From Hydrangea macrophylla (lineage: Eukaryota > Streptophyta > Magnoliopsida > Cornales > Hydrangeaceae): 64,000 nt of DNA. This document shows, in pieces, positions 2,263 through 42,800 of the stretch (its first letter is position 1; every line of letters begins with the position of its first letter). Under the pieces are notes generated by a model that was given only the letters and a program-made list of their open reading frames with translations, did not search any database and was not told the DNA's origin. The position numbers and the translations under genes were made by a program. The stretch lies in contig CM066984.1 of NCBI GenBank assembly GCA_033977485.1, forward strand, positions 48,844,600-48,908,599, written 5' to 3'.

Positions 2263-4599
2263 GGAGAGGTATCTCCATTGGAGAGGGGACCAAGAGAAAA
2301 AAGAATATAGGGGGAATTTGAGAGGAATTTAGGAGAACTTTTGAGAGAAGAACATTTGGGTAGAAGAGAGAACATTGGGAGAAGAACTTGAAAGAAGAGC
2401 TTGGGAGATCTTCAAAATATAGAAGTTTGAGGATAGTTGGAGGTGATACTTTACTCTTGTTAGTTTTCTTTTATGGATTTAGAGCACTTGCTCTCTTAGT
2501 TTTCTTGATTTCATTTCTTCTTTTTGTTTATACTTTTCTCTTGAGATTCTTGGAGATCTTCAATATCTCTCTTGAAAGCTCTTGAGTTTGATCTTTTGAA
2601 TCTCATGTAAGCTTATGCTTCACATGGGAGTCAAAGTTTGATCATCACTTCACTTTTGTAAACAAATAGATGGATCCAAGTCCATATTCATGACTTGGAT
2701 TCTCTAACTTGGAATTTCATGGGATCTTCTCTATATCCTCTTGAAGTTCATGAGCTAGTTCTTTGATTATTCTTCTCTTTTTCTTGTTTATGCTCTTCTC
2801 TTGAGACTCTTGGGGATCTTCCATATCTCACTTGAATCTCATGAGTTTGATCTTTTAGTCTCATGTAAGCTTATGATTCACATGAGATTTAAAGTTGATC
2901 ATCATTTTATTAAGAACAAGTAGATGAATCCAAATCCCTACCATGGTTTGGGTCCTCTAAGCTTGAGTTTTCATGGAGTCTCCTTATATTCCTTGAAAAC
3001 TCATGAGTTTTAGTCATGTCTTGATCTCCAATGACCATCAAAGGGTAGGATAAGTGGTTTGGATTAAACCCAACTTCATGGTTTAACAAATAAAAGTTGA
3101 ACTTAACAAATGAAAACAGTGAGTTCACAAACTGTTTTTGATCAAAGATTTTTGGTTCGAAATCTAACCGTTGGAATCAAGTGAAACCAACAGGAAAATG
3201 TCACTAACTCAAAGTTCTACCACTGTAATTTTTGTTTTAAGGAGATTTCATGTTTAAAGTGGTTTGGTCATGAGTTTTGTGAAGTCACTACAATATGTCC
3301 AGAGTTTTAGAACAGCAACACCCTTTTGAAATAAGCAAATCAGAACCTTAATCAAGTATTTGTGACCCAAAATAATTTTTTCTAAGTAGATTAATGTGTT
3401 AGGAAGCTACCCTAAAAAGAACAATGCATTTCTGATCTTTTTGCTATTTTTAAAAAATCAAACAAAATCTCTGGACAGAGAGTTGTACATCTCTGAGTGA
3501 TGTCTGGTGTTTGTCCTTTTCCCAGAGATCTAACCGTTGAAACTTTGATTTTCTTTTTGATTTGGAAACTAGACTCACAGAGTCATCTTGTGTCCAAAAT
3601 GCATCAAAATCAAACCACGGGAAGCATGCTTTTTATTTTCATAAAGTTCTGGTCTGCTCTCTGCAATTTTCAGAATTTTTTATGACAAATTTGACCAACT
3701 TTGTAAATAATGGTCCAAATGACTTTTCTATGACCTAGGGCTCAAACCATGTTTTAATAATGATTAGTTAAGCTTGAATTCAAAGTTTAAGTGATCTAAA
3801 TCACTGATTATTTCATAATTTATTCTTGTTCATGAACATATTCATCCATGTGGTTTGATGCTTGTAATTAGGACTTGTTTGCTTTAGATTTAATTACATT
3901 TGATGGATTTAAGCTAGAAGTCTAGGATTGTTATTTAAGATCCAATTTTATATATTGTATATTATGTGGACTAACCCTTTGTTTTGTAGCGCTATTAAGG
4001 TATGATTTCTTAAACTCCTCTTAATTTATTTTAATTTCTTGATTTTATCGATTTTCTTGACCTTTGTGCGCGACACATTAGAATTAAGATTTTGCCTTAA
4101 ATGTATATATGTGGATTAGAGACTCTTTTCCTAGGTTTATTTAATCGCATGCATTGCACGTTTAATATTCGCGGCTGGATCCCGGGTAAGTTCTCTTGTT
4201 TTTTAATGCATATCATATTGCTTGCTACTTGAATTACGTGGCTTTTGAATGATATTTTGTAAATTAGCAATTTTACACCCCTTGGACATGCTTTTGTAAT
4301 GTATATCTATACGTATGTATTAGTTGATGGCACATTTAAATTAACAATTCAATTAAAAGGATGTTGAGTAGAGGCCTATCGCAAGATAGGATGAGAAGGG
4401 GTGTTTTAGTCCGATGGGCTCCTTCCCTTCTCATTCCATAATCCCCGGGCCTAGTTTAATCTCTGGTTTCTAAAAAGATCGGTTTGCTTTAAAAATGGTT
4501 TCTTAATTTTTCCTTTTAAAAATTAAGTGGCGACTCATTTGTTTTGAATTTGAAATTTAAAAGAACTTTAAAAGAAAAAGTTGTGGGTAGGAAAAATTG

Positions 4600-17672: not shown

Positions 17673-20600
17673 TGTAACATCATCAACATCATCATCATTA
17701 CTATTGTAATTTTCATCATTACTGTTGTAATTTTTATCATCATTCTATTTTATCTCCTCTCACTCTCCCACTCACTATAGAAATAGAATGCTTTCGAAAG
17801 TTATTAATTTACGAGGGTAGACCAAATAAGCTGCTGTATCTATATGAACCTACTACATTCACTCGTTGAAATTGCAGGTTGTGTATTTTGTAAATTCTGG
17901 GACAGAAGCCAATGAATTAGCAATGCTGATGGCTCGACTATACAGTGGTAATCTGGGTATGGTTGGGTTGAGGAATGCGTATCACGGCGGAAGCTCGGGT
18001 ACAATCGGACTGACAGCTTTAAACACATGGAAGTACTCAATTCCACAGGTTCCATTTCAATCTATCGAAGCTTATGATTGCATTTCATTTTATTTGTTGT
18101 TAGGATATTTTGAAATCCAATTTATCATTAATTATACGAGAATTTGCAACTATATTCCAAGTCAGCCTATGTTTCAATGGGCTTACTACTTGCATGCAAC
18201 TATAAGTAACCTTGCAAGACCATGTGATACTGGTTTGTTCAGTCTTTCTCATTGCGTGCTCCATTTTCCTTTTCCCATCCCGTTGATATTAGATTGAATG
18301 CTTAACTGCTTTTTGTGAACTGCAGCGAAAGGTCCGTAATAAGCTTCTGGCTTTCCAAAGATGGCAGAAGCTATTTGTTACCCTTAATGCAATTAAACCA
18401 ATATGACCCCTACCCTTAGCACACCCCTAGAAAAATTGCATATTTTCACTCTGTATTATATTTTATTTTCTATTTTCAAATTTTCCTAGACAATTTGGGG
18501 CACAAATTTGTCAAATTGATGTGATAACTTTTTTCATTGTCAGTTGTAAATTTATTCTAGAAGTTTATTTTCTTTCCCTGCACTTGCTTGTCTTAAATAT
18601 TACGAACTTAACTATGCTGGTTCTATCTCTCGCCCGCATGGTTCAAGGTCTCGGCCGAAACCGAGTCATCTCGGCCGAGTCAACTCGGTTTCGCTGGGTA
18701 ATGAAACGAGATCTAGAGACGAGTCAAGTAATAATGAAAACGACGTCGAATCGGTTACCATCTCGGCCGTACCGCCAGGTATCGGACGAGATGGTGCCGT
18801 CTCTCACGAGATCTCGGACGAGACGACGAGATGAAGATCAAACGTACAGATTTGAGGGGAACAAAAGGCCAAAGCGTACCTGAGGAGTGAGGACAGTCCA
18901 CACGATCATGTTCGATTCTCTTCCATCTTGCTCGCATAGAAAAAAAAAAAAAAGCAGATCTGCTAGTTCTCTGGTTCGTCTCCCTCTCTCTCTGTTCGAT
19001 CTCGATCTGGGATCTCCTGGTTCGATCTCCGATTCTCCTTTCTCCCTCTCTCTGGTTCGTCTCCCTCTCTCTCTGTTCGAGACCAGGAGTTCTCCCTCTC
19101 TCTGCTCGCGATATGCTGGAGACTGGAGTTCTCCCTCTCTCTGCTCGTGATCTGCTGGAGGTGTCGCCGTCTCTCTCTGGCCATTTTTCTTGGTCGCAGC
19201 GTGAAGAAGAGGAGAAAGGTTAGGGCTTGATATGTGTTTGGTTTTTTTTTTTTCATTTGGTTGTGTGAGTGTGTGCCTGTATTTGTGGTTAAGTAATGCT
19301 TAACCATTAGTAACACTTGTTTGGTTGTATATTATATTATAATTATAATATATTATGCTTAACACTTGAGTGACTTATTAAATACTATCACATTATATTA
19401 CACAACATTATAATACACCAATTTATAATTATATACTACCACATTATATAGTTATTAAATTATTAATTATAATTATGGAGGATACTACCACATTATGTAT
19501 TAAATTAATAATTATAACTTATTATTTTAAAAAATAAATTAAATTTGAAATTAGAAACTTATTATTAAAAAATAATTATTAATAAGCAAAAAACTTAATT
19601 ATTAATAAATAAATCACTTATTATTTCTTGCTAAATTATATTTTAAATTACAAATACACATTCGGTTTATTTGTCACATTTGAAAATCAGTTTACTGTTT
19701 ATTCAAAACTAAGTCGGTGTTTATTAACATTTGTTAGAATGCCTCCAAAACAAGATATCGGTTAGGATCATGGAAAACCGGTTGGAGGGAGTAAACGGAT
19801 AACCATGCGTAATTATTGTGGAAAGATTGTGCATGGCGGTATCACGAGATTGAAGCAACACGTGGGTAGAGTATCGGGAGAGGTGAATCCGTGTCCTAAA
19901 GCCCCAGAGGAAGTATCAAAACACTTAAAACAACATCTTGCTGAAACTGCTAGTGCAAGGGAACTTCAGAAAAGAAAAAGGGAAAAACTTATTGCCAGTC
20001 TCCGAGAGGATACCTTGTACGACGAAGAGAAGAATATTGATGAAGGTGATGATTATGATAACGAGGACGAGGAGGACATTGGAGGAATGTCCCGGCTTGA
20101 AAGACAGCATTTCAAACAAGCAGTAAAAGAGAGTAGGAATATGGCGTACATGGACGATGATAGGCGTAGGCACTCTGTTTTCGAAGGAGTACAACAGACT
20201 AAAATCTCCCAGTTTGCCACTGGATCTCAGATAGCTTCTGGATCAAAACGTGCACCACCACCTCGAAGGAATTTCAGAGTGAGAGAAAACGTTGAGATGC
20301 CCAAATCAGGTACTGACCCTTATATGTTTAGGCCAAAGTCTGGATTTCAAAAAAGGGTGAAGGACATGTTTAATACCGAAAATGTGAAGAAAGTAGGGAA
20401 AGCTATTTCCAAGTTTTTCTATTACAATGGGATTTCATTCAATGCAGCTGATAGTGGGCCATACTACTAGTCGATGATTGATATCATTGCTGATTCTGGA
20501 CCTGGTATTAAGGGACCTTTTGGTTATCAAATTGCCAACATATACTTGGAGGAAGAGGTAAAAGAGCTAGAAACATACATTATGTCATTGAAACAAAAAT

Positions 20601-23600
20601 GGCCTGACTATGGATGCACGATCATGTGTGATGGGTGGAGTTCAAAAACTAACAATCCTATCATCAACTTTATGGTTTATTGTGATAGAAATATGTTGTA
20701 CCATACATCGATTGATACTACAAACAAGTCGAAGATTGCATCCTACATTTTTTCACTTGTGGACAAAGTTGTGGAAGAGGTTGGTGAGTCCAACGTTGTG
20801 CAAGTTGTTACAGATAATGAGCCAAGCTTTAAAGCGGCTGGACAATTGTTGATGGAGAAGAGGAAGCATTTGTTTTGGACTCCATGTGCCGCGCATTGTA
20901 TTGATTTAATGCTAGAAGATATTGGTAAGATGTCGTCTGTGAAGCATACACTTGACCAAGCAAAGAAAATAACAAGTTTTATTTATAACAGTCTAAAAGT
21001 GGTGAATCTTATGAGGACATATACCAACGGTAGAGACTTGCTGAGGCCGGGGATCACTAGATTTGCAACTGAATTCATTGCAATAGAAAGCCTTCTACGC
21101 TATCAAGTTGATTTGAAGAAGATGTGCACATCTAATGAATGGAGTGACTTCAATCGTGAAAAAAGGAGAAGAAATATTGCATCTCAAGTATCTGATCTAA
21201 TTTTGACGAATCGGTTTTGGAAGAAGGCAACAGTTGTTAAATAAATAATGGAACCGCTTGTTAGGGTTCTAAAAATAGTTGATCAAGACAAGAAGCCTAC
21301 AATGTCGATTATCTACGAGGCAGTAGATAGAGCTAAGCTAGCACTAAAGGCGTCAATCAAAGATTTTCAGAAGTATTGGGATGTCATTAACTACCGATGG
21401 GAGAGTCAATTACATAGGCACCTTCATGCAGCAGGTACGTTGTGTGATTCAAATGATGTTTTAATAGCTGTGTGAATTAATACTTAAAAAACTAATAAAT
21501 TATTGTCTTTCTGACCTACAAACAGCATATTTTTTAAACCCTGCATTTCGGTATTCCCAAAATTTTTCTGATCGTCCGGAGGTGCGATATGGCTTGAAAG
21601 AAGTAATTAAGAGGTTAGAGCCAGACATAACAAACCAAGCAAAAGCTATGAGTGAGGTATGTAATTTTTGGAATGAGACTATTGGTAATATAAAAACAAC
21701 TCATAAAAAAAATAAATCATTTTTTCAATTGTAGATAAAAATTTATGTGGATGCAAGAGGAGAGTTTGGACAACCTCTAACAAAGAAAGCAAGGACAATA
21801 GATCTCCCAGGTTCTTGTTTATTTCAGGAAGCATTACCTTATGTAATGTATATTAAAAAAGTATATAAGTTTATGATTATGCTTTCTTGCAGCTGAATGG
21901 TGGTATAACCATGGCGAGGAAGCTCCACATCTTAGGCGAATTGCAATTAAAGTCCTCAGCCAAACGTGCTCTTCTTCGGGTTGTGAGAGAAATTGGAGCA
22001 CGTGGTCAATAATTCACACCAAACTACACAATCGCTTGGCAATGCAGAAGTTGCATAAACTAGTTTTTGTGCACTACAATTTGCGATTGCGAGTCAAAAA
22101 TATGATGTACTTGTCAAATGATGAGGATTATTATAATCCAATTGATCTTAATCATATTTTTGAAGATGATGACATATTATCTGATTGGATTAGGGAGACT
22201 GAACCATCTGATCTTGGAGATGATGATACGTGGTTGAACGCAGCTCTTCAAAACAATGACGAAGGTCAAAGAGTAAGAGATGAAGAACAAGAGGAAGACG
22301 ATACTCCTATTCCTTCAAGGTCGAAGCAATCATTAATCAACAAAAAAGGGAAGGGTGTTGCACAAAGTAGTAAATCAATTTTTCCTAGTTCCAGTTCTAG
22401 TAGTGATGATGATGATGATGGTGATGATGACACTGAAAGGGGAGGTGGTGGCGATTATGGCGGCGGTGATGGAGATGGTGGTGGGGGTGGTCATTCTAAC
22501 TTTCCTGCTGGCATGTCATGGGCATAAGGAGATGATTACTATAATGCCGCACAAGACACTGACCATGGAAATAGGTCAGGAATAGATGCACAGCGTCAAC
22601 ATTTGGCTAGAGTGTGTGAGTTTTCTAGTAGTGACGATTATTCTAGTGGACACAATGCTAGTATAGGTATTGATGATCAGTTACGTAATATGGGGATAGG
22701 ATTTAAGGATTGTGGAGGATACGGGCAACCCCATCATGCCATTACAGGATATGGATATGGTTCTCAGGGTGATCTTGGATGTTCAAGTAGTACCACTGAT
22801 GGTATGGGTCACCTACCACCCGTACGACAACTTGAAAGATCTACTAGTACAAGTAGTGGTGGGTATTATGATCGTGCTCGTAGGAGGTACCGAGAGACAT
22901 AAGCTAGCACTGGCACAGGCGGTGGAGGAGGCTATAGTGGCTATGATTTGGGCCGCCATCATAATGGATCATCGAATAGCATCGTTGAGTATCGAGGAGC
23001 TGGATACTATCATCAACCTGTCAATTCTTCCACAGAACCCATATTATGGATCATCAAGCCAGTCATCTCAACATGCACCTTTAGATTATGCTTCTATATT
23101 GTTTGGGGGCCTTCAATTTCCATATCCACCGAATGCATTCAATAATTAGGAGAATAACGACTATGATGATTTTCAGCCCCCACGACACTCCATGTGGCAT
23201 TGATTTGGTAGTTATTGATGAAGGTGATCCTAATTATGTATGTAGTGTTATCAAATACTCAATCCGCAGCGTGTGTATTGGATATTATGTGACATTGTAA
23301 TTGGTATATTGTGTATTGTGACAATCTATTAGGCCAAATTCGTTATTCAAATGATTTTAGAATTTTTCATTATTTTTCCAGATTTTTTTGAACCTTAAAT
23401 CTAGCGTATCTTTGCGTATCGCCCGATACCAGTCCGCGGCGCCGCGACCGAGTCGTCTCCGCGACCGCGACCGATACCGCGACCTTGAACCATGCTCGCC
23501 CGGTCACCCCTTCACAACTTATTCTTGGGTTATCTTATCAGATAACTTCTTCAATCTCATACAGTATATCTAGTGTACTTTCAGCTTTTGGGTGCTTCAA

Positions 23601-26600
23601 GTTGAATCGTTAGAAGCATATTGAATGTGAGAACCTTGATGAAATTAGTAGGAGGAGAGAATTTAGCATGTTGGCCATTTTTTCCCTCGGTTAAAAGGAG
23701 CATGTTGACCATTGAGGTTCCATGTGTACTGCTTTAGTTCAACCAGACCTTAGATCTGGAGTATAAAAATCAGTGCTCAGTTAGTACGTATATTGAGGCT
23801 CATAAAACTATACACATTTAAAACATTTGTGTGAAGGTGTAAATGAGGCAGGCTTCAAAATGGCAGATTCTGGCTTGGGTCGCTTTGATTTTGGAATGCT
23901 AGTTGAACCTCCCTCGCCATGTTTGGTAGACCTGGGTTTAAATGTGCCGTATGTGGAAGTGCCCATACACTTATTCTCTATTACTGTGCAAAAATACTTC
24001 ATGATGTGAGATATCTCTAAGGCAAACCCAGGGCATAAGTCTCTTGCTACAGTGGGGTACAGGGATAGGCTAGCTAGACATACACAGTCTTATCCCCATT
24101 AGGCCCTTTCGAAGCCGTGACCTCTAGGTCAAATGGAGCAACCTTAGGTTGCACAGAGGCTCGCACTCTGATTTGTTATCGGGGATATCCCTATAGTTGT
24201 GAAATAATGCAACGTACAAATGATTTTACAGTAGGCCAACGCTATGGAGGTTGTACCTTAGAGCATTAAAAGGTTGGGAGAAAAGTTGAATGATTTGTGG
24301 ATGGAAAGGGATTGGAGTCCAAGTGCCTTAATTCACTCTAGGGGCGGGGGCGGTCCTTGGACTAGGAAATCTGTCAAGGGTAGACTTTGAGAACGCGAGT
24401 CCATGTTCTGGCCTAGGAAGCACTGACACTTCAAATGAAGTGTCGTATTTGTGTTTGACACACCTCAGACACCGACACGTGTCGGACACACCAAATATGT
24501 GTTTGGATGTTATCATTATATTTGCTAATAATGCTTAAATGGTAGAGTTGGTGGCATTGTTATGATATTTTCATGTTCTATTGTTGTTTGGAGGTAATTT
24601 ATTTAACATCTCAGTTCTTAGTTACTTCAAGAATATTGTTATTTTTTTTGTTATTTTGTCGTATCGCCGTTTCGTCTCATGTCTGTGTTGCCAATTTTGT
24701 ATTGGTGCTTCTTAGGTTTTGGTCAAACCTGCGGCATAGGGAAATAATCCCAGATTTGATTGTAATTCAATTAATCCAATTAATTAGGGATGATATGTGT
24801 GGGTACTATTATCCGCCAAACCTACCATGATTGACACGTGTCATCCTATCACATGAAGACACCTTACAAGTTCCTGACGGATAAGGATGAAACAATAGCC
24901 ATATATCGGGGCGCCCCATGTATCCCACGACGCAGGGCCTACATTACTTCATCTGGGCTCATTTAGACTACCTTTGGTAATACTCAGCTCAGATAGACCT
25001 CGATTAGGGGCAGATCTTGGTGCAACACCACTGTACCACGATATGGTCATTCTAGACCATGGTACGGTAAAGTCAGTCTTTGTTCTATCGGGAACTCTTA
25101 GGTTATGTGGCTTGGTTGGCTTAAGAGCAGAGCTCACTTAGGAAGGTCGCGACGGTCTCTTCTTCTATACAGTTCCTAAGTCTTTCTCAAGGTCAGTGAG
25201 ACTATCTGAAATAACTCTCAAGTATACCCCGAGGACATTCCTTGTGTTGTCTCCGGACGACACGTGACATTTGGGTACACTTCAACAGGAATGAGCCACT
25301 CAGTAGTGCTCATGCCTTGGCACGTGTCCCAATTACTATAAATAGGAACAATACCCTCAGTTGCGACATAAGAGACTCTGGACATTCTGAGAGAATTTTA
25401 GACATTCCACTTGGGATTTGTGCATTTATGAGCTCATTGTGTATATTCCTTCACACATAGTTGCTCGACCATTAATTGCATGGGTTTCTCTCTGAATACT
25501 CCCCCACTCACTGTCCTTTAGTTTGTCTCTCTTTACCTCTCTTCCGCTTTCCTTCGAGACTTCCTCTGCACCATTGATTCTTAGATTACTACTCTCTTAC
25601 GAACTCTTCTATCTTACCTTACTCCACCACTCAGAAATCACTACCTACATTTTGGCGACTCCGCTGGGGAGTAGCATCTTTGAAACAATGGTAACTGTCT
25701 TGAAAAGCGGAAGGGTCCTGGGCGAAAACAATGACAACGTCGATTATGAGGAAATACCAGAGAGAAACCCTGTTCTAGACACTCTGGTAAAGATGTTCGA
25801 GACGATTCAAGCGGCTTTGCAACAAACTCAACAAGACATGCAGCAGACTCAACGGCTTATTCTGGAGTCGTTGGGAACTCTGCAACAGCATGAAGCACCA
25901 CATACCAGGGAGACCCCCACGACCAGGGACATCTTGCCACCAGAAGCGAGACAATCTCCACCTGTCGAGATCCATAGTGGAAGCCAGGATCAGGTACCAC
26001 AAGCAACTACTGTGGGGTCCACTCTTGACTCCACTCACACCCCGCCACAAACGCATCTGACTTAAAGCTCAACACCTGTCGATATCTCCCTACAAATCCA
26101 AAAGGAGGTGCAGACTTTGCTCCAGCTGGAACGAACGCGTTTCATGGGCTCCATCTACTGCGATTTTCGTCCTCCATACTCAACGGAAATCGATGCTATG
26201 CCGTACCCCATCGGTTATGTTCCCCTAGTTTTTCGTCTATTTAACGGAAAACAAGGAAACTCTTACAAACACGTAGCAAGGTTTGTAGAAACCCTGACTA
26301 ACTACAGAGGGGACCATGGCTTACGTTTGAAGGAGTTTTCCAAATCTCTAACCGACAAAGCATATACATGGTACATCAACATCCCCTCGGGACCATCACC
26401 ACCTGGGAGACGATGGTCCAACGCTTTCACGAGAGGTTCTTTCAAATGGAAGAAAGCGTGACCCGCTTTTCTCTTACTAAGATTATCCAAGGACGCGACG
26501 AAGACATCCTCGTATATGTCAAGCGATTCCGAGAGGGATCCATTGACTGCCACGATGATAATTCTACGGAGCTCATTAGAATTTATGTAGATGGCGTGTA

Positions 26601-29490
26601 TCACTGCTTCAAAATCTACCTTGTCAACTCAGGTATCAGGACTTTCTCGGCCTTGATGGAGAAAGCCGGAAATTTGTAGAAGCAAAATGGACCCATCGCC
26701 CGAGTTCCCGTGTGGGCTGTAGGAAGTAAGAGCCATCTTCAAACGATGGGTTGCGGAGAAGGTTATTGAGATACCGGGAGTGGACAATCCATTAAGCCGC
26801 GAAGAATTGGCCAATGATGATTTCTGGTATTTGCGGAGCCTGTTTCACAAGAAAATCCTGAGCAATGAGTTGGAGATACCCAGCGCTCAAAGTATCGAAA
26901 TGGATCCGCTCCCCCACCACGGAAAAACTCGAGTCGCTATGTCGTCCTATTATGACGAGATTGAGGAATCGCTATGTATGAAGCGCGGAACCCGAGTTCG
27001 ACAGTGAAGAACTCATTGTCAGGCAGAATAATACGCTGATAAAGACCGTCAAGTTCCAACGATTCTTTGATTAGCTTGGCCTATCTCCAGAGGCTAGGTT
27101 CGTAGCGACCAGGGCAATGATAGGTACCACGGAGATACAGGTGGAAGAGTACATAAGGGCAGGAGGATCCATGCAACGGATGCTCCGTGAAGCTGCATCA
27201 AAAATTACTTTTTCAAGAGAGGATAGGCAAGTGCCCTTTGCGCACAACAGGCCGCTGTATGTACCAGTAGAAATTAATGGCATTGAATTCCAACGTGGGT
27301 TCCTGGATTGCGAAGCTTTTCTTAACCTGATGTTGCTGGACGTCCACTTTCCGCCGCTGGATACTTCGAGCAAGACCTAAGCTTACCATCGATCGTCATC
27401 AACGGATTTGGATAAGCTTCTCAGTGAAGCCTGGGACACATTACCATAAATCTCACTATGGGACCTATTCGATGTCATACCAGATTTCATGTGATCGACG
27501 CGGATACGGCATGCCATGCTTTATTGGGAAGAAACTGGATGCACAAATTCTCCCTCATCCTTTCCACATACCATCAATGCGCGAAGGGTATTGTTAACAA
27601 CAAGATTGTCCGTATTGTCGCTTCTATGGTAAGCTTAGGGGTCAAGATCCTTCGTATGTACTCGCCCAATCCCGAGGTGGGAACAAGCAAGACAGAACAA
27701 TTTTGAAACGATTCCCAGAAAAGGGAAAGGCAAGAAAAAAGTTAGCAAGGAACCAGAATGCTATCGCGTTCGTCTCCCAGACGGAAAAATCGTCTGTCAA
27801 TTATGGCGGTCTCCGGGGACTCCTTCACAATTAGAAGGGTACATAATTACAACACGATCGACGCTGCCTTGAGCCATCACGAGGAAGAGCTAAAGGTGGC
27901 GCCGAAATGTTTGCAAGATAGACCAAGGAATAAACAACAAAAGATGGAACAGATAAATCTAGCGGATACGGAAGGACAGTCAGCTAAAATGTTTTTCATT
28001 TCATGCGATTAAGCAAAGAAAGGCGGGCTGAACTCATCAATTTGCTTAAAACTAATTTGGATGTCTTAGCGTGGACCTACGTTGAAATGCCAGGGTTGGA
28101 CGTTAATATCATAGCTCATAAACTTAATGTCTCGGCCGCAACAATCCAAGTGAAGCAATCAGTGCGAGTCTTTCGCCCGGAACTGGAAATGCAAATAAAG
28201 GAGGAAATCACAAAGTTATTGAAAGCGGGTTTCATTAAACCCATACACCATCTGACATGGCTGGCCAACATCGTGCCAGTGAAGAAGAAGATTGGTCAGA
28301 TACGCGTCTGCATCGATTTTCAAGATCATAACAAAGCATGCCCAAAAGTTGATTTTCCACTCCCTAACGTGGGAACCTTAATCGACGCGACGACGAAACA
28401 ACAGATCTCCTTTATGGATGGTTTCAGTGGAGATATAATCAGATCAAGTTGGACACTGATGACGCAATGAAGACGGCTTTCAGAACGCCGCTGGGCAACT
28501 TCTTCTACACGGTTATGCCATTCAGACTCAAGAACGCAGGAGCACCGTACCAAAGGGCCATGATGGCTATATTCCACGACTTCCTGCATTCAATAATGGA
28601 ATTCTATATTGATGACCTCGTGGCCAAATCAAAGCGTGAAGATGATCACTTCAGAGATCTGTAGACAGTCTTTGATAGATGCAAGAAGTTTAACTTAAAG
28701 ATGAATCCGCTGAAAATGCGCGTTTGGGGTATCGTCGGTGAAGTTTCTTGGATGCATTGTCCATCGCCATGGTATCGATCCGGCAAAAATCACCGCCATC
28801 TGGGAATGCCACGACCAACGACCACAAAGTAACTCAAAAGTCTGCTAGGAAAGATATCTTACCTATGAAGATTCATCCCCGCCTTGCGGAACTCGATCAT
28901 TCTCAACTCTGTTAATGAGCAATACAACATTCGCTTGGGAGTCGCAGCACGATTTGGCTTTCGAAGCAATCAAAAGGGTGCTGACCTCCCTGAGAACCAT
29001 GACTATCCCGACAAAAGGCCAACTGTTGCTCCTATATCTTATCTCTACAACAAAGTCAATCGGAGCATTACTCGCACAAGAAAAGCCTATCTACTACATT
29101 ATCCGTATTCTCCCAGGCCCATAGGTAAGGTATTCAGCGATGGAGAGACATTGTCTGGCTCTCATATTCGCCATGCAGAAATTTCGTCACTATCTCTTGG
29201 CATTCCAGCTAAAGGTCATAACCAAATGTGACCCCATCAAACATTTCTTGGGCAAGCCAGCCTTGTCAGGTAAAATAGCTTGATGGCTTTTTACTCTGGT
29301 TGAATTTGACAATGCATGCTCGCCGCCGACAGCAATCAAAAGTCAGGCTTTGGCAGATCTGCTAGCCTAATTCCCTAGCGGCGAGCCCGAGCCTATCATC
29401 GAAGAACTTCCAGGTGATGACTTCAATGCATCTACTGCAGTCGCAGCACAAGGCACGTGGGTACTTTGTTTCGACGGTTCATCCACTTCT

Positions 29491-29526
<36 letters not shown>

Positions 29527-32500
29527 GTGGTTTCGAACTGGGATCGTGCTTACCTCACCTAACAAAGAAGCGATGAACCTATCTTTCAAGTTGTATTTCC
29601 TATATTCGAACAATGAGTTAGAGTACGAGGCACTCATCTTGGGACTCTTGGCTGTAGAAAAGATTGGAGTTGGAACGATAGAGATCGCGGGAGACTCCAA
29701 TCTTGTGGTTAAATAGATTGATGGAGATTATGCCATCAAAGAACCTGCCTTCGCAGCTTATCGTACTATACTACAGCAATACCTGGATAAATTTGGAAAT
29801 GTCCATATCAAGGACGCACCAAGGTCTAGCAATAGGCACCCGGATGCCCTCACAACTTTGCCATTCAAGCTGGACATTGAAGGTGACTCCGTTACGATCG
29901 AAAAATTCAAAAGGACACTCACTTGCACAATCACAGAGCTCGTTTCACACAAAGAGGACAAGCTGAGCGACTGGAGGATCCCAATTCGACGCCAACTACA
30001 AAGTCAAGGATCCACCCTTTTGCCACACTTAAAAAGTTTTTTGATTTACCAAGGCGAACTCTATTTCAGAACCCCTAGGGGGTGGGTCGCTAAATGCATG
30101 GATAAAGGGGAAGCTGCACTTCGCCTCGAGACGATCCACAAGCTAACGTGTGGCAATTCAGATATCAGCTTGTATAGGATCATACAAAGAAGGGGATTCT
30201 ATTGGTTGGAAATGACCAAGCGAATGAACTCCAACAAAGCTGCGCCTCATGCCAAGAGTTCCCTGCCTGAAATGAATGCAACTTCGTGGAAACTGGAAAT
30301 GACTGGCGCAAACTAGACATTGATTTCCTCATAGAAGGAATCCTATCGGTCGAAAACATTGACGCATCCTCCGTCAAGAAAAAGGCATCGCAGTTCTTCG
30401 TGAATGAGAAAACCCTATTTCAGAAAGGTTTCAACGGAAAGGCTTTGAAATGTCTCGTAGGCCAAGAGGTGTACGATGCCTTGCAACAAGTCCACCAATT
30501 TGAACATCAAGGAGGAAATAAGCTGTACCAACAACTCTTTACATTTGGGGTACTATTGGCCTACAATGGAGAAAGATGCATTGGACTTCACGAAGAAGTG
30601 CAAAGCCTGCCAAATACATGCCAATAGTATACACGCTCTAGCCGTAGGGCTAAAATGCCTAACGAATCCCTGACCGTTCCATACTTGGTCAATGGATCTT
30701 ATGGGCGCCATAGCACCATCACGAGGAAATATTTGGATACTAGCGGCTGCGGAGTTGTTCACAAAATGGGTAGAGGCCATATCACTAAGAAAAGCAACTG
30801 GGGAAAGCATTGCGAATTTTGTAAAGCAGTACATAATTTGCAGATTTGGCACCCCCAAGGCGATACTATCTGATAATGGCAAACCCTTCACTTCGAAGCC
30901 CGTTACGAGCTTATATTTCAAGTATGGCATCTCACAGCACAAGTCTAAAGTTTACTATCTTAAGGGAAATAGGCAAGCCGAGGTAAGCAACAAGACCCTC
31001 TCCCAAATTCTAAACAAGACTATGACTGATTTCCCTAAGAATTGGTCGGACCAATTGCCATTGGTCTTATGGGCCTATCGAACATCTAAGTGGCACCCTA
31101 CTCAAGCCATGCCTTTTCTCTAGTCTATGGTACTGAAGCAGTTGTCCCTGCTGAGATTGTGGTCCCGTCAGCCAGAATTGTACTTCAAAGCGAGGTCGAC
31201 TTGGATACGAGATATACAGAGTTGGAAAGCCTAGAAGAGAAATGGGACAAAGCCAAAGGAGCCTTGAAAGTGTACCAAACGTGAATAGAGCGTGCTTATG
31301 ATGCTTTGGTTTGACCCAGACAAATCAAGGAAGGGGATTTGGTTTCAAAAGCAGCAGCACACGTAATGCGAAGCATGTCCGCCCCTAAGCTCACTCCTAA
31401 ATGGGAAGGTCCCTATCTTGTTAAAGAAATCCATGATAGTGGTTATTGCAAATTGGTCCATCGATGGTAGCGACCAAGGGACTCTGAACCTCAAATAGGT
31501 GAAGTCTTTCTATTCTTAGGCTGACAACTTCTCTCTCTCTCTATGGATAGCACAATTTATGTTTCCTTAAGATATTCGCTACAAAAGCAACAATTTATGA
31601 ATATAAGCGTGCACTTTGCACCTTTTCTTTTATTGTGTACTTAAGGGTAAGTCTTTTCCCTTTCATTTCAATTGTTCATTACCACTCACAGAAACAGACA
31701 AACGCTCGGAATAAGCCTGTTTCCACACACCATATGTTTGTCCAAAGCAAAGAAATAAAACACAAATACGTGCACAATGAACACAGCACGAACAAAAGAT
31801 AAGTCTGCTTCATTTACATATTTGTTTATTACAAAAGTGTGGCGAACTGCCCATACAGAGGTGCTCGACCAGACGCACTGGTGTTCAACCAGACACACCA
31901 TCTTCTCCAACCACCACCAACTACCAAACAAAAAAAAAGTAATAAAAAGAGGAGTCCGAAGATTCCAAAAGTCGGCCCAACCGGCCCCAAGGATTTAAGC
32001 GCCCAGAAGATCCGTGCTAGTTGACCAGTTATGAGTTACACCAACCATAGACACTTGATCTTCAATTGCCCGAATATCGGCCCCTAAACTAAAAAGATAA
32101 GCATCAGCTTCCCTAATTTTTTCATTCAGATGCATTGACGCTTTGGTAAATTCGGAGCAAGCTTCATCAAAGGCTCGAGAATCCGCATCGTTGACAAGAT
32201 GCAGGCGAAGTTGTTCGGATGACAGGTCGCCAAATTTATGGGCTTCCATCCTTACCTCCTCCAGATAGTCCCTGTGACGACTCTCAAAGTAATGAACGCT
32301 CTACATAAGGCTAGGACAATGACGTCTCTCCCTCACGATGAGGAGACGAGTCGCCAACCAAGCCACGTCCACCTGACGTCACTGCTACTTCTCACATAGA
32401 AAGCCCACGCGATCAAGAACCTTGTAAGTGATGGAGCCCAGAATGTGTCCCTAAAAAGTTTCCACAATCTCAGCCAAATGAGCACAATATTCTCTCTGAA

Positions 32501-33852
32501 GGTTACAGTGAAAGTCATCAAAGAGCACCACATGACTTCTACTTTGTTCGACACTCTTTTGTGGGTACAAATATCTTGATTGTGTATGTTGATGATATTC
32601 TTATTTGTGGGAGTGATATTACTGGTATTGCAGATTTGAAACGTCATCTTAGCCAGCACTTTCATACTAAAGACCTTGGTGCTCTTCGCTACTTTCATGG
32701 GATTGAGGTTGCTCGTTCTCGTCAGGGTATCTCTCTGTCCCAACGGAAGTATGTGCTTGACCTTTTATCTGAAACAAGTCTCTTGGGTTCTCGAATCTCG
32801 GTCGGTTGATACTCCCATGAATTCCACTATTAAACTTGATGGTGAGCAAGGTGCCCTGTTTACCAATGTCGGCGGATACTGACGCATGGTTGGGAAGTTA
32901 ATTTATCTTACTATCACCCGTCCGGACATTACGTATGATGTCGGCGCAGTTAGTCAGTGACGGTCCACTTTTGGCTATTGTACCTTTGTTGGTGGAAATT
33001 TGGTTACATGTCGTAGTAAATAGCAAAATGTTGTTGCGCGTTCCAGTGCCGAATCTGTGTATAGAACCATGGCTCATACTCATGGTTCAAGGTCGCAGTA
33101 TCGGTCTCGGTTGCTGAGGTAGCGGAGACGACTCGGTCGCGGCGCCACGGACTGGTATCGGGCGATACGCAAAGATACGCTAGATTTAAGGTTCAAAAAA
33201 ATCTGGAAAAAGAATGAAAAATTCTAAAATAATTAGAATAACAAATTTGGCCTAATAGATTGTCACAATACACAATGTACTAATTACAATATCACATAAT
33301 ATCTGATACACACGCTGCGGATTGAGTATCTGATAACACTATATACATAATTGTGTAAACAATGTTCAATAACTACCAAAAGATGTAAAATTAAGTCTTT
33401 TGTTTATTAATAATTATACAATGTGGTATATATATATATTTTTTGCTAGCTTAATGTGAGGAGATAATATTATACTTAAACCACATTATACTTTTTTCGG
33501 TTGGGATATAGTCGTATAGCATAATATATTATATTATACTATAATGTAGTATATTTGTATTATAAATAGGTGTTAAGTCTAATATAAGTGTTATAATGTT
33601 AAGTCTAATACTTTATCCAAAAAAAAAAAAATGGTAAAGTCTAATATAACTTAAGCCTACTATATTATAGTCGTGTTAATTGTATTAGTTGTGTCTACTT
33701 TATCATAGTGTTAGTCAAATAAATATCAAACCCAAAACAAAACCATACCTTTCTCAGCCTTCTTCAAGCGTGCGATACAGAAGAGAGACAAATGGAGAGA
33801 GCAAAACCTCCACAGATCTATGCGAGAGAGAGAGAGTGAGAGAGAGAGAGAG

Positions 33853-33885
<33 letters not shown>

Positions 33886-36800
33886 ATAACAAGCAGATCT
33901 GCGTCGAGCATATCTATGCGAGAGAGAAAATCGAGATCTCAGATCGTGGAGTCTCACGAAGGCCTATCTACTTCATATCTATGAATATAATGCAGAAAAG
34001 GTAAGATTTGAAACATTTGCCCTCTTTTTCAGACTCAAAAATATGTCGTGAGAGATTGGTCTCGCCATCTCGGCTGAGATCTCGTACGCTACGGCACCAT
34101 CTCGGCCGATACGACGCGTTACAGCCGATACCACCACCGATACTTCGTCTCTTGAACAATATTTGTATCATCTGTGTATCTCGTTTTGTTGGGCTTCGAA
34201 ACCGACTCGATCGAGACGACTCGGTATCGGCCGAGACTTCGAACCTTGCTCATCCTACTTCTGGGATGCTATGGGTTCGTTCTCTACTTCAAGACCTTGG
34301 TGTCAATGCACGGTTCGAAGTCCCAGACGAAACCAAATCGTCTCGGTCGAGTCAACTCGGTTTCGCAGGGTAACGAGATCTAGAGCCGAGCCAAAAATTA
34401 ATCAAAACTACGTAGGATTGGACACCATCTCGGCCGTACCGCCATGTATTGGACGAGATGGGTCCGTCTTGCACGAGATCTCGGACGAGACGACAGCTTG
34501 AATCTCAGAGGTACAGATTTGAGGGGAAAAAAATAGGGAAAATTGTACCTGAGGTCAAAATCGTGGTTGAACCATCTTCAATATTCGATTTTCTCTCTCT
34601 CTCTCTCTCTCTCGCTCCCATAGATCTACGGCGACCAGATCTGAACGAGCCTCGACTTCTCAGCTTCTCCAGTCCAGTTCGTCTCTCTTTCTGTCTCTCT
34701 GTGCGATCTCGACTTCAAGTTCTTGAGCTTCTCCAGTTCGTGTCTCTCTTTCTCTGCTCGATCTGCTGGAGGTCTCTTCGTCTCTCTCATGCCATTTTTT
34801 GGTCGCAGTGAAGAAGAGGAGAAAGGTTAGGGTTTGTTTTGTGTTTGGTTATTATTATTATTATTTTTTTCATTTGGTTGTGAGTGTGTGACTTCCGACG
34901 TGTATATGTGGTTGTGTTTGACTTAGGTAATGACTTAACACTTGTATTTGGTTGTATATTATAGTATAATATATTATGCTTAACACTTAAGTGACTTATT
35001 AAATACTAAAATACTACCACATTATATTAGACAACACTATAATACACCAATTTATAATTATATACTGCCACATTATATAATTATTAAATTATTAATTATA
35101 ATTATATGCTACCACATCCACATTATATAATTAATAAATTATTAATTATAATTATATACTACCACATTATATAATTATTAAATTAATAATTATAACTTAT
35201 TATTTTAAAAAATAAATTAAATTTGAAATTCGAAACTTATTATTAATAAATAATTATTGATAAACAAAAAACTTTATTATTTATAAATAAATCACGTATT
35301 ATTTCTTGCTAAATTATATTTTAAATTACAAATACACATTCGGTTTATTTGTCACATTTGGTAGTTATTGATGAAGGTAATCCTAATTATGTATGTTGTG
35401 TTATCAGATACTCAATCCGCAGCGTGTGTATTGGATATAATGTGACATTGTAATTGGTATATTGTGTATTGTGACAATCTATTTGGCCAAATTTTGTTAT
35501 TCAAATGATTTTATAAATTTCCATTATTTTTCAGATTTTTTAAACCTTAAATCTAGAGTATCTTTGTGTATCGTCCGATACCAGTCCGCGGCGCTGCGAC
35601 TGAGTCGTCTCCGCGACCGAAGCGACCGTGACCGATACCGCGACCTTGAACCATGTGTTAATGTCTCTGCTGCCATGGAAATGTTTTGTGATAATCAACC
35701 AGCTCTTTTTATTGCTAATAATCCTGTTTTCCACGAGTGTACCAAACATATAGAGGTTGATTGTCACTTCATTCGGGATTTGTTGGCCAAGAAACAGATT
35801 GTTATTGTTCCGACAATCAACTTGGTGATATTCTCACTAAACCTGAGCCTCGGGCTTCCTTTACATTTTTGTTTTCCAAGCTGGGGCATGTTTGATTTTT
35901 ATGCTCCAGCTTGAGGGGGAGTGTTGAGTGTTAAGAAAATAATTAAGGGTAGTATGGTACTTTTTCCTTGTACTCGTATATAAATGCAGAGATTGTTGGG
36001 TGCAGGATTAATTTTCTGCCCTATTATTTTATCGTCTTCTCTTCTCTCTCTTCCCTGCTTCTCTAACCTTTCTAACCCTAATCTAATACTACAAGATTCA
36101 ACTACTACCATATATAGGCTCCGAGTCCTTACCATTGAACTATTGGCTTCTTTTATGAATGTCGGTTACATCTATTGTTGTAACATTCTAGTTTGCAGAC
36201 CAAACTATGTTTAATATTTATATATTGCCACTCTGTCTCAGGTTAAGAATTTTTAACAATCGACACACTTGCCTCGCACTTCCGCTCCTTTCTGAATTGG
36301 ATACTGTTAATAGTGTGTATTATTGTATCTTGGGTTGTCCCACATCGCTTCGTTAGTTTAGTTGTTTAGGAGTTAGACGCCTATATATAGGCTCTTGTAT
36401 TCTTCGTCCTATTAATTCAATATATTGTGAGTATACACACATCTACATGGTATCAGAGCAGCCGATTTGAGTTCGCTCATCTCATTGCCGACCCAAAGTT
36501 AGGGCCGAGAGTTGTCCATTGCTGAACCTCTGTGAGTGTTCGAGAGTCTGTTCGAGAGTCTGGTTTGTTGTATCCAATCACAAGCCGCAAACCTCAAAGG
36601 GACCACACAAACCCTAGCCGCAAGCCACAACAAGGGAAAACCCTAGCCGCATCACTTCAGCACCTGACCCAGCCTCCGCTGAGCCTCGCCTGACGTCGCC
36701 TGCCTCCGGCGACCCCCGTCCATCGTCGCCGCTCCTCCGGCGATCTCTGGCGATCCCTCCAGCACCTGTTAGCAGCTCCGGCGACCTCTCCAGCCCCTCC

Positions 36801-39800
36801 AGAACCTCCGGCGACCCTCGCCTTCCCCTCCAGCACCTCCGGCGAGTCTCCCCTGACCTTCGCGACCTTCGGGCAGTCCTCCAATAACTCCGGCGACCTC
36901 TTACACATCTCTGCCAGCCCTCTGTGTATACGTGTCATGGTTCGAAAACTCGGTCGATACCGAGTCGTATCGGCCGAGTTAACTCGGTTTCGCCGTTTCG
37001 GTGAGTGCCAATACGAGTCAACTCGGCGAGTTACAGTCGAGTAAAAAAAAATATTTATCGCGAGTTAACTCGCCCGATACGGACGAGATAAGGAAAAATC
37101 GGTACGGATCGTCCGAAACGTGGGTTTTGAGGTGACAGAAAGCAAAAAAAATGTTGGAAGCACATACCTTTTGCTGACTGAAACTCCCAAAACTCCCAAG
37201 GGCATCTTCATCTTCATATCTCTTTCTTCAGATCATCATCTTCATCTTCAGATCTGATCTTCGGAGTTCGGATCTTCATCTTCTTCCCGAAGGTATGTCA
37301 TCGATCTGTGTGTGCATGTGTGTGTGTCGCGAGCTGTGTGTGTGTGTGTGTCGCGATCTGTGTCGTGTGTGTGATTGAGTGTGTGTCGATCTCTGTGTGT
37401 GTGTGTGTGTTTGATTGTGTGTAGAGTGTTTGTGTGTGTGATTGTGTGTTGGCTTAACACAGCCATAGTAGATATATATATAGTAGGAGTAATATCTAGT
37501 AATTTTTTTTTGTTTTTGGTTTTTGTTTTGGCTGAATAACCCAATATTAGGTTATTAATTTCTAGTAATTTTTTCTTCTTCTCCCTTTTTTTTTTTTCCT
37601 TCTAGTTTGTGTGTTTGTTTTATTTTTATTTTTTTGCTCTAAAATAGGAAAGTTATTTAGTGTAGAATAACTATACTTTTTGAGTGTATATATTATCTTA
37701 AAAAATTAGATTGGACAACATAAAAAATTAAATAAATGAGGTTGGACAAATATTATCTAATTTCTAGTAATTTCTTCTTCTTCTCCCTATTTTTTTTTTC
37801 CTAGTGTGTGTGTGTGTGTGTGTTTTTTTTATTTTTTTGCTCTAAAATAGGAGAGTTGTTTAGTGTAGAATAACTATACTTTTTGAGTGTATATATTATC
37901 TTTAAAAAATAAGATTGGACAATATAAAAAATTAAAAAATGAGGTTGGACAAATATTATCTAATTTCTAGTAATTTCTTCTTCTCCCTATTTTTTTTTTC
38001 CTAGTGTGTGTTTGTTTTATTTTTTATTTTTGCTCTAAAATATGAGAGTTATTTGCTGTAGAATAACTATACTCCATGTGGCACTGATGTTCCATGTGTA
38101 CAATTATTAGACATTAGATCGACAGCGTCTGAATTGAATAAGATGTGCTTCTATAATTGGTACATTGTGTATTCTGGAAATCTATTAAGCAAATTTTGCT
38201 ATTCTTATTATTTTAGAATTTTCATAATTTTTTCATATTTTTTTGAACCTTAAATCTAGTGTATCGGAGCGTATCGCCCAATACCAGGCCATATCGCTGC
38301 TACATTGAGTCGTCACAACGGTCTCCGATACCGCGACCGATACCGCGACTTTGAACCATGATATGTGTGGTGCAGATCTTGGTTTTTTGGCTTCTTTTGG
38401 CTTTGTTTCACTTCACATCTCGTCCCTTTTTCGCTCATTTGGTTCCGATCTGTTGTCCATGGAGTCCAAAGCTCTCCCTCAACTCACCACTAGGAAGTTG
38501 AATGGGTCCAATTTTCTTCAATGGTCTCAGGCTGTTCATATTGCTCTCACTGGCTTGGGGTTTGATGCTTATCTTACCGAATCTTCTCCCACTACCGATG
38601 ACAAGGCTATCAAGACATGGAAGCAAATGGATGCCCAAATCGTTGCCCTCCTTTGGAACTGCATGGAACCACACATTGCGGATATGTGCGGTCACTTGGG
38701 CACTTGTAAGGATATTTGGGAGTATACTCATCTGTTATTCTCCATCGATCTCACTCGGATGTATGATCTCTCCTCTCAGTACTTTCAGTTGCAGCAAAGT
38801 GATCTCTCCGTTACGGAGTATTTTGCCTCCTTCAAACGGTTAGTTGAAGAATTGAACGACGTCATGCCTATTACTACTGATGCAAAGAAACAGCAAGAAC
38901 AGAGGGAACAAATGGCAGTAATGAAGTTTTTTGCTGGCTTAAAACCTGATTTTGAGCCTGTTCGATCCCAGATTCTAGGGGGTGCCTCTCTGCCTTCTCT
39001 TGCTGAGACTTACCAGCGTGTTCTCCGGAGTACATCTCGTGATCAGGGTTCTAATTCCTCTGTTACTGATCATTCTGCCTTAGTTACTCAGGCTCCACCA
39101 CCCACTGCTAGTCGGGGTGATGGTAATCCCCGTCGTGGCCGTGGTGGTAATCGTGGTGGATATGGGGGCCGTGGTCGTGGTGGTCGTCCTCATTGCACCA
39201 ATTGTGATAAGGACGGTCATTATAAGGAGACATGTTGGGATCTTATTGGTCGCCCTGCTCGATTTGCACATGCTGTTGTCTCTAGTGATGCTTCATCCTC
39301 TTCTTATGCTCCTGTTGCGGGTGATCCGATTTCCATTTCCGGTGAAGAGTACTCTCAATTTCTTCAGTTTCAGGCCTCTCAGCATGCTTCTGCTCCTAGC
39401 ACATCTCTTGCTCAGAAAGGTACCTCCACTGCTTGTCTTACTTCCCGTACTCGTCCTTGGGTAATTGACTCTGCTGCCACCGATCATCTCACAGGTATAT
39501 CCACCCTTTTTTCTTCTCTTGAGCCATCTTCTTCTTTACCGCCCGTTACTTTGGCGGATGGCTCTTCTATGCCCGTTGAAGGCATAGGGACTGTCCAATT
39601 ATCCCCGTCTTTGTCCTTATCATTTGTCCTTTTTATATCACGTTCACCTTTTAATTTGATATCTGTTGGGAAGTTGACTAAAGATCTTAATGTTTGTGTT
39701 TCTTTTTTCCCTGATTCTGTTCTTATTCAGGATTTGGCGACTCGGAGGACGATTGGCGTAGGGCATGAATCCGAAGGTCTTTACTACTTTGATGAATTGC

Positions 39801-42800
39801 CTTCTTCTTCAACTCCAACAGCTTGTCCTGCCACTGTGTCTCCTCACCAGATCCATTGCCGTCTTGGTCATCCTTCCTTAGCCAATCTGAAGCTACTAGT
39901 ACCTAGTTTAAGTCATTTATCTACTTTAGAATGTGAGTCTTGTCAATTGGGGAAGCATCACCGTGTCCAATTTGCTCCTCGAGTTAATAATCGTGTGTCT
40001 AGTCTATTTCAATTAGTGCACTCAGATGCTTGGGGTCCACATCGTATTACTTTAATAAAGGGGTATCGGTATTTTGTTAGTTTTGTTGATGATTTTTTCC
40101 GAGCTACGTGGCTTATTTAATGAAAAATCGTTCCGAGTTATTTACTATATTTTCTACATTCTGTAATGAAATTAAGACTCAGTTTAATGTTCCTATTCAA
40201 ATTCTACGTAGTGACAATGCACAAGAATATTTTTCCCATCCCTTCACTTCATATATGGCACAAGATGGCATGCTTCATCAATCCTCGTGTGTGAACCCCT
40301 CAGCAAAATCGGGTTGCAGAAAGAAAAATCGTCACTTATTAGAAGTCACCTGTACATTGTTATTTGAGATGCGGGTCCCCAAGATCTTCTGGGGAGATGC
40401 AGTTCTTACTGCTTGCCATTTGATTAACCGTATGCCATCTTCCATTCTAGATCGAGCCACACCCCATGCCACTTTGTTTCCCACTACTCCACCTTTCCCT
40501 GTTGCTCCACGTGTGTTCGGGTGTGTCTGCTTTGTGTATCAACTCACTCCCGGTACCGACAAGTTGGATCCCCGTGCTATCAAGTGTGTTTTCTTAAGGT
40601 ACTCCAGAACACAGAAAGGCTATCGTTGTTATAGTTTCTACTTTGCATCGCTTCTTTGTCTCTGCTGATGTTACCTTTTTTGAATCCACCCCATATTACT
40701 CTGAGTCTCACTCTATTATTGATCCTGACTTTATGGTTCCCCTTTCCCTTCCCCTCTCCCTACCTCCCAAAGCTGGATTGGACCGTCCTGACCTCCAGAC
40801 ATACACTCGCCGCCATCAGACTGTTGAGACTATTCAAGATTCCGCTACTACGCCTGTGGCCTCCGTGTCTTCAGATCCGCCTCCGTCAGACTCAGACCTT
40901 CCGATTGCTCTCCGGAAGGGTAAGCGTACTTGTACTTCTCATCCTATTGCAAATTTTGTCTCTTATGATCATTTGTCTCCCACTTTTTCTTCGTTTGTTG
41001 CCTCGTTGTCTACTTTTTCTATTCCCAAGTCTACTGCCGAGGCCCTTTCTCATTCAGGATGGAAACAAGCTATGGAGGATGAAATGCTTGCTTTGAGAGA
41101 AACTGGTACTTGGGATTTAGTAGCTCTTCCACCTGGGAAGTCTGTCGTTGGGTGTCGTTGGGTGTTTGATGTTAAAATGCATCCTAATGGAACTCTTGAT
41201 CGGTTGAAAGCACGTCTTGTTGCCAAGGGATATACTCAGGTTTATGATCTTGATTATTTCGAGACATTTCTCCGGTTGCCAAGATTGCTTCTGTTCGTCT
41301 CTTCATCTCCCTTGCTGCTGCATATCACTTGCCACTACATCAGTTGGATGTCAAGAATACTTTTCTCAATGGCACTCTTTTGGAGGAGGTATATATGGAG
41401 CAACCACCTGGGTTTGTTGCTTAGGGGGAGTCTAGTATGGTCTGTCGATTGAAGAAGTCTCTGTTTGGTCTGAAACAGTCCCCTCGTGCTTGGTTTGGAA
41501 GATTTAGTGAAGTTGTTGCCGAATTTGGTCTCCAGCGGTGTGGTGTTGATCACTCTGTCTTTTATAAGCATTCTTTAGCAGGTAAAATCCTACTTGTTGT
41601 CTATGTTGATGATATTGTTATAACTGGAGATGATTCCAAGGGAATTCAGGAATTGAAGACCTTCTTGCAAAAGCAGTTCCAAACTAAAGACTTGGGACAA
41701 CTTAGATACTTTCTGGGAATTGAAGTTGCTAGATTTAGTGAAGGGATTTGTCTCTCTTAAAGAAAGTATGTTCTTGATCTCCTCTCTGAAACAGGCCTTT
41801 TAGGGTCCAAGCCCTTGGATTCTCCTATAGATCCTAATACTAAGTTGTTATCAGATCAGGGAGAGCTCATTGATGACCCAGGACAATACAGACGTCTGGT
41901 AGGGAAGCTTAATTACCTAACAATAACTAGACCTGATATTGCCTTCGCTGCGAGTGTAATTAGCCAGTTTATGGATTGTCCTCGAACAAACCATTGGGAT
42001 GCAGTGATACACATTTTGAGATATCTCAAAGGTGCTCCAGGACATGGTTTGTTGTACAAAGATCATGGTCACATACGAGTAGAAGGTTACACTGATGCAG
42101 ATTGGGCAGGTTCTCCTGATGATAGGAGATCCACTACAGGCTATTGTGTTATCGTTGGAGGAAACTTTGTTTCGTGGAAAAGCAAGAAATAAACTGTGGT
42201 AGCTCGGTCTAGCGCAGAATCAGAGTACAGAGCCATGACCCATTCTACTTGTGAGCTAGTATGGACAAAGCACTTATTAGAGGAACTTGGGTTTACTCAA
42301 ACTACTCCAATGAGTTTGGTACGTGATAATCAAGCTGCAGTTCATATTGCCTCTAATCCCGTTTTTCATGAAAGGACAAAGCACATTGAAATCGATTGTC
42401 ACTTTGTTCGAGAGAAGCTTTTGGAAAATGTTATTCATACAGTGCATGTAAAGTTTGCAGATCAATTAGCTGACTTGTTCACTAAAGCATTAGGAGGGAT
42501 TCGAGTGAAGTATATTTGTAACAAGCTTGGTGCATATGACATGTATGCTCCAGCTTGAGGGGGAGTGTTATAGTGTGTATTATTGTATCTTGGGTTGTCC
42601 CACATCGCTTAGTTAGTTTAGTTGTCTAGGAGTTAGACGCCTATATATAGGCTCTTGTATTCTTCGTCCTATTAATTCAATATATTGTGAGTATACACAC
42701 ATTTACAGCTACCTTGATGGGATTTATATGTGCATATGTTGCAGGAATTTCAGGAAATGTGCTTTGCAATTTTCTGAACCACAATTGGTCTAGGTTTTTG

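What the first reader, a model, noticed from the sequence alone, without database searches (positions are those of the whole stretch)
18637..38360. A four-member hAT family (one transposase-bearing, three deleted) clustered in one intron
Elements at 18637-23494, 33081-34248, 34309-35655 and 36936-38360 share CATGGTTC-type termini and CTCGGCCGAG subterminal motifs. Each keeps an 8-bp target duplication (8/8, 7/8, 7/8, 7/8 matches). The first encodes a BED/DUF659/hAT-C transposase; the others do not. Four copies within 20 kb of one intron fits the known preference of hAT elements for short-range transposition. I do not recognise the CATGGTTCAAGGTC terminus as a named family.
Basis: partly seen in the sequence, partly recalled or inferred. 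Interest (0 to 1): 0.78.

Follow-up and report, generated by a model that had tools for sequence, protein, structure and literature searches.

The report
Four separate hAT insertions, one intron
Four ordinary cut-and-paste transposons from different branches of one large plant family ended up in the same long intron, three of them inside older retrotransposons, and the evidence says they did not arise from one another by short hops.

Summary
Four hAT insertions with 8-bp target duplications (8/8, 7/8, 7/8, 7/8) lie in one ~26-kb intron of an aminotransferase gene. The first carries DUF659 and hAT-dimer domains, but its frame has at least three in-frame stops. The second is inverted. The family is large (990 right termini within 2 mismatches, control 0). 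The four fall in four subfamilies, each with closer kin elsewhere. Trees holding them together are rejected (p-AU 4e-40 left ends, 2e-69 right ends). El2 and el3 sit 60 bp apart inside one old Copia RNase H frame. El4 sits in another Copia with LTRs 97.2% alike, yet differs 22-33% from el1-3, so it is no recent local copy. The family does cluster: of 8 other close pairs, 3 are near-identical with separate flanks (local hops likely), 3 are different lineages, 2 are ambiguous or composite. Side finding: between subfamilies right ends are much more alike than left ends, suggesting exchanged ends. Otherwise an ordinary hAT family.

The parts
18637..23494 (+). el1: 4858-bp hAT element with transposase remnant; duplications CTCGCCCG at 18629-18636 and 23495-23502
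   Evidence: left end 96-98% to seven other copies; whole element 97.0-97.1% to the two C4 copies
20528..20971 (+). DUF659 domain of el1 transposase (Pfam PF04937)
   Evidence: E 4e-57
21889..22083 (+). hAT C-terminal dimerisation domain of el1 (Pfam PF05699)
   Evidence: E 1.9e-10
33081..34248 (-). el2: 1168-bp element, reverse orientation; duplications 33073-33080 and 34249-34256 (7/8)
   Evidence: full-length relative 93% on C13; empty sites
34309..35655 (+). el3: 1347-bp element; duplications 34301-34308 and 35656-35663 (7/8)
   Evidence: full-length relatives 83-84% on C11, C13, C8; empty sites
36936..38360 (+). el4: 1425-bp element of a fourth, more distant subfamily; duplications 36928-36935 and 38361-38368 (7/8)
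   Evidence: relative 89% on C7; empty sites
32432..35914 (+). Old Copia remnant (RVT_2 at 32432-32809, then RNase H frame) interrupted by el2 and el3, which lie 60 bp apart
   Evidence: RVT_2 2.1e-16; joined flanks read in one frame, one stop codon within it; 40 uninterrupted paralogues. RNase H name is by my reading; limits approximate
36305..42707 (+). Younger Copia holding el4 between its 5' LTR and gag; LTRs 36305-36447 and 42566-42707, 97.2% alike; flanking pentamers GATAC/GCTAC
   Evidence: uninterrupted paralogues
25496..31123 (+). LTR-retrotransposon remnant (integrase core; Ty3/gypsy-like by my reading) between el1 and el2
   Evidence: rve 5.8e-14 at 30674-31123; three other frames in this span gave no Pfam match
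17893..18050 (+). Upstream exon of the host gene (class-III aminotransferase; AGXT2-like by my recall), end approximate
   Evidence: Aminotran_3 2.4e-5, below the curated cut-off; motif scan
44538..44900 (+). Next exon(s) of the host gene downstream of the four elements, limits approximate
   Evidence: motif scan

Best explanation
These are four separate insertions of one abundant, many-branched hAT family. Each was moved by cut and paste by a transposase encoded elsewhere or, for el1, possibly once by its own. They reached this intron from different sources at different times. The intron is a nest of older retrotransposons that tolerates insertions. El2 and el3 landed in one old Copia, el4 in another Copia, and el1 in intron sequence not identified as a transposon here. 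Shown: ends, duplications, empty sites for el2-4, four-subfamily membership, nesting. Inferred: cut-and-paste mechanism (from the hAT family), helper transposase in trans, tolerance of the intron.
For: Duplications at all four; empty sites for el2-4; four subfamilies, each with closer kin elsewhere; clade of the four rejected, p-AU 4.45e-40 and 1.86e-69. Host clock: el4 entered with or after a Copia whose LTRs differ by 2.8% over 143 bp, yet differs 22-33% from el1-3. If el4 rode in inside the Copia, it is no local hop either. Other copies of the family have duplications of at least 7/8 in 17 of 22 examined (7 of 9, 10 of 13).
Against: Four copies in 20 kb is unlikely under even scatter: with 990 termini in 2.22 Gb I estimate about 1e-4 such clusters genome-wide, so a regional preference or uncounted diverged copies must be assumed. 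El3's right end is nearest to el1's, 93%. The rows in the trees were picked as best matches to the queries or as close pairs, not at random.
Confidence: 0.88

Rival explanations
1. Local hopping: el1 or a lost relative re-inserted several times nearby, and the deleted copies are its offspring.
For: The family clusters at short range: 6 pairs against 0.2 expected, and 3 against 0.17, within 25 kb in two samples, the first count including one window pair. Three of the 8 other pairs are 98.3-99.7% alike with separate flanks. Ac in maize re-inserts within 5 cM in 50-60% of cases (PMC3016246, passages seen). El3's right end is nearest to el1's.
Against: Left ends of the four are only 67-83% alike; closer kin lie elsewhere; clade rejected; el4 is excluded by its host Copia's clock.
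Confidence: 0.05
2. Regional insertion preference (open chromatin or AT-rich intron) rather than chance draws many subfamilies to the same few places.
For: Three of the 8 other close pairs are of different lineages (two C1 pairs, one C10 pair), which local hopping does not explain. Cross-type pairs within 25 kb: 4 against 0.37 expected.
Against: Two of the 4 cross-type pairs are in this window, and the other two lie in what looks like one duplicated block on C3, so the independent evidence is one pair. No chromatin data were used. For C10 only part of one member was fetched.
Confidence: 0.45
3. The elements came with a duplicated or translocated segment.
For: Such a case exists in the family: the C13:1.34 Mb pair shares flank and target duplication TAAGCGAT.
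Against: Each window element has its own different target duplication and el2-4 have empty paralogous sites.
Confidence: 0.01

Closest known systems
Plant hAT families with BED/DUF659/hAT-dimer transposases, such as proteins of Vitis, Coffea and Andrographis
   Same: Transposase relatives: 1901 proteins at E <= 0.001; of the 120 listed the best is 83% identical (unnamed ENA record), Andrographis 56%, Coffea 56%, Vitis 57% over the whole query; 8-bp duplications, short terminal repeats
   Different: Terminus CATGGTTCAAGGTC not matched to any named family; Repbase was not available
Hatvine families of grapevine (PMC2528002; passages seen)
   Same: 4-5.5 kb full elements, TIRs of 8-23 bp, 8-bp TSD, many deleted copies; Hatvine-6 members share TIRs and transposase but have variable remaining sequence
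   Different: Not compared by sequence; here the variable part includes the left end itself
Ac/Ds of maize (PMC3260210; abstract and passages seen)
   Same: One autonomous type with heterogeneous non-autonomous members sharing ends
   Different: Domain make-up and ends differ by my recall; not tested

Membership tests
hAT superfamily | 8-bp target site duplication | tested here: met
   8/8, 7/8, 7/8, 7/8; 17 of 22 other copies examined at 7/8 or better; misses: C1c and C1d 3/8, L027 tandem 3/8, L042 second copy 1/8, L043 palindrome 1/8
hAT superfamily | Short terminal inverted repeats with A at position 2 and G at position 5 (recalled rule) | tested here: met
   CATGG at both ends of el1 and el4; CAAGG/CATGG in el2; CACGG/CATGG in el3
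hAT superfamily | Transposase with hAT dimerisation domain | tested here: met
   El1: PF05699 1.9e-10 and PF04937 4e-57, in a broken frame; el2-4 not scanned with Pfam
hAT superfamily | N-terminal BED zinc finger | tested here: inconclusive
   Not found in el1; 7.8e-4, just below cut-off, in the C4 copy
hAT superfamily | Active cut-and-paste transposition | not testable with these tools
   needs an excision or insertion assay
Cluster made by local transposition | Neighbours are each other's closest kin, with separate target duplications | tested here: not met
   separate duplications yes, closest kin no

The most novel reading that the evidence does not exclude
Subfamilies of this hAT family are built by swapping ends: one right end of about 300 bp has been joined to several unlike left ends, perhaps through template switching while an excision gap is repaired. 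Within subfamilies both ends diverge equally (left 93-100%, right 94-100%), but between subfamilies 1, 2, 3 and 5 left ends average 70-86% and right ends 92-96%. One copy (C1:41.82 Mb) groups by its left end with the el2 type and by its right end away from it (p-AU 0.0028). Selection on the right end of source copies is the main alternative.
Probability: 0.35. Interest if true: 0.45.

Novelty: new member of a known kind. Interest (0 to 1): 0.24.

Why it matters
It is a worked case showing that a tight cluster of related transposons with good target duplications need not mean local hopping. Nesting in dated retrotransposons gives a clock that separates the two readings, even for cut-and-paste elements that leave no donor copy. 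If the end-exchange reading is right, it would show how non-autonomous hAT lineages renew themselves.

Tried and rejected
Rejected: local hopping for this cluster; segmental duplication; simple deletion derivatives of el1 (left ends too different). The PDB sequence search gave only zinc-finger matches at E 0.19 and 0.38. The Magnolia paper has no occurrence of 'hAT' in its main text. The literature search for chimeric hAT ends listed one paper, PMC8277862, seen only as a listing; it is not shown that the end exchange is unreported. Contig lengths of C5 and C9 were guesses (105 and 111 Mb; C9 is 110.66 Mb).

Full report
Setting. The window lies at C3:48844600-48908599 of a 2.22-Gb genome in 19 contigs. 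Size and chromosome number resemble Magnolia biondii (about 2.22 Gb, 19 chromosomes; PMC7917104, passages seen); the species is my inference. Exon motifs of a class-III aminotransferase (AGXT2-like by recall) occur at 17893 and 44538 on the + strand, with the four elements between them. The Pfam match of the first exon frame is 2.4e-5, below the curated cut-off.

The elements. One search confirmed the ends and target duplications of all four; el2 is inverted relative to the others. Only el1 has an exact CTCGGCCGAG. El1 carries DUF659 (4e-57) and the hAT dimer domain (1.9e-10). Its frame is broken by stops at 19763, 20468 and 21242. Further changes of frame near 21470 and 21730-21880 may be introns, since a C4 copy changes frame at the same first place. 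In the two full-length C4 copies, read stop to stop at 150 aa or more, no single frame held the whole transposase; whether a working copy exists is not known.

Sites. Joining short flanks without one duplication gives one continuous Copia reading across el2 and el3, with one stop codon in it. Forty of the 40 scored places (of 1578 candidates) in the genome run across both junctions, best 92%. For el4, 17 of 26 places run across the junction, best 97%; 2 more are the window's own halves and 7 cover only the right part. El4's host Copia has LTRs 97.2% identical over 143 bp and flanking pentamers GATAC/GCTAC.

Family size. The 24-base right terminus occurs 203 times exactly and 990 times within 2 mismatches; the reversed control gives 0. 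The el4 form of it occurs 183 times, and one el3-type left terminus 12 times.

Kinship. Best matches: el1 left end 98% at C3:120.66 Mb and 97.7% over about 1.6 kb at C12:101.93 Mb; el2 93% on C13; el3 83-84% on C11, C13 and C8; el4 89% on C7. In each of these searches 40 candidates were scored out of 541, 1737, 1526 and 1955. Among the four, left ends are 67-83% alike and right ends 76-94%. Trees of 35 left and 26 right ends put the four in four places. Holding them together costs 594 and 177 log-likelihood units (p-AU 4.45e-40 and 1.86e-69). Against my reading: el3's right end is nearest to el1's (93%), and el2's nearest right end outside its own pair of C13 kin is el1's; both parts of the right-end tree are weakly resolved.

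Clock. A local copy of el1-3 placed at el4's site after the Copia arrived should differ from its source by about as much as the two LTRs do, 2.8% (4 of 143; my rough 95% range 0.8-7%). It differs by 22-33%. If el4 was instead carried in by the Copia, that also is not local hopping. El4's nearest scored relative is 89% alike, which fits conservative cut and paste that leaves no donor copy, or an unscored closer copy.

Clustering in the family. Of the first 100 listed exact termini (C1 to part of C10), 6 of 90 neighbouring gaps are under 21 kb and none lies between 21 and 138 kb. Pairs within 25 kb: 6 against 0.20 expected for this type, 3 against 0.17 for the el4 type, 4 against 0.37 across types. 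One same-type pair and two cross-type pairs are in this window; the other two cross-type pairs seem to be one block present twice on C3, judged from mirrored positions only. All 8 other same-type pairs were fetched. C3:22.51 Mb: 99.7% alike over 1563 bases, inverted, 911 bp apart, own duplications of 7/8 and 8/8. C4:97.1 Mb: 98.3% alike, own duplications 8/8 each, nearer to each other than to el1 at 97.0-97.1%. C6:60.8 Mb: 99.2% over the last 754 bases, different right flanks, left ends not identified. C7:15.46 Mb: 91.6%, one copy with 8/8, the other 1/8. C9:70.49 Mb: a palindrome with two right ends outward and no duplication. Two C1 pairs and one C10 pair: different lineages (left ends 73% and 66%; C10 right ends 90%, the left end of one member not fetched). 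So short-range hopping is likely for three pairs, and co-location without close kinship is found for three. The window belongs to the second kind. Local hopping as a general habit of such transposons is described in PMC3016246 (passages seen).

Unequal ends. Over 22 copies with both ends read, within-subfamily means are left 93-100% and right 94-100%. Between subfamilies 1, 2, 3 and 5 they are left 70-86% and right 92-96%. Subfamily 4 (el4) differs at both ends, 65-72% and 77-79%. A mere rate difference should show within subfamilies too. Copy C1b (C1:41.82 Mb) joins the el2 type by left end (99/94 support), but holding it with el2 and its two C13 kin by right end is rejected (p-AU 0.0028). 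An earlier test of a wider group gave 1e-7, but that group held another row that does not fit. The groups were named after the trees were seen. Eight of the 22 copies (the pairs) were chosen by an exact right 24-mer, which biases 24 of the 270 right-end columns. Selection on right ends of source copies remains possible. In Hermes the transposase binds the left end through BED domains and the right end through none (PMC10368747, abstract and passages seen), so different left ends could in principle mean different recognition; that is speculation here.

Verdict. Real hAT insertions, ordinary in kind, from four branches of an abundant family in a retrotransposon-filled intron. The local-hopping story fails for this cluster although the family does hop locally elsewhere.

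Noticed in passing
L043 (C9:70486129-70489747), 201-3418: Palindromic composite: two el4-type right ends outward, arms 96.6% alike over 1518 bases, no target duplication.
   Followed up: partly
L027/L029 (C7:124129699-124132411): Two el4-like copies head to tail, 1 bp apart.
   Followed up: no
L010 and L013 (C13:1.341 and 1.346 Mb): Inverted duplication that includes an el2-type right part, its flank and its target duplication, 96.3% over 1820 bases.
   Followed up: partly
C3:22.51 and C3:32.95 Mb of the genome: Mirrored matches suggest a block present twice on C3, about 10 Mb apart; real or an assembly artefact not tested.
   Followed up: no
window 1-1100: Many offset self-matches, 76-88% alike: a diverged tandem array at the window's start.
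   Followed up: no
window 37552-38073: Internal repeats inside el4, 87-89% alike.
   Followed up: no
window 36936-38360: El4's nearest scored relative is 89% alike although its host Copia's LTRs are 97% alike: no recent sister copy seen among 40 scored of 1955 candidates.
   Followed up: partly
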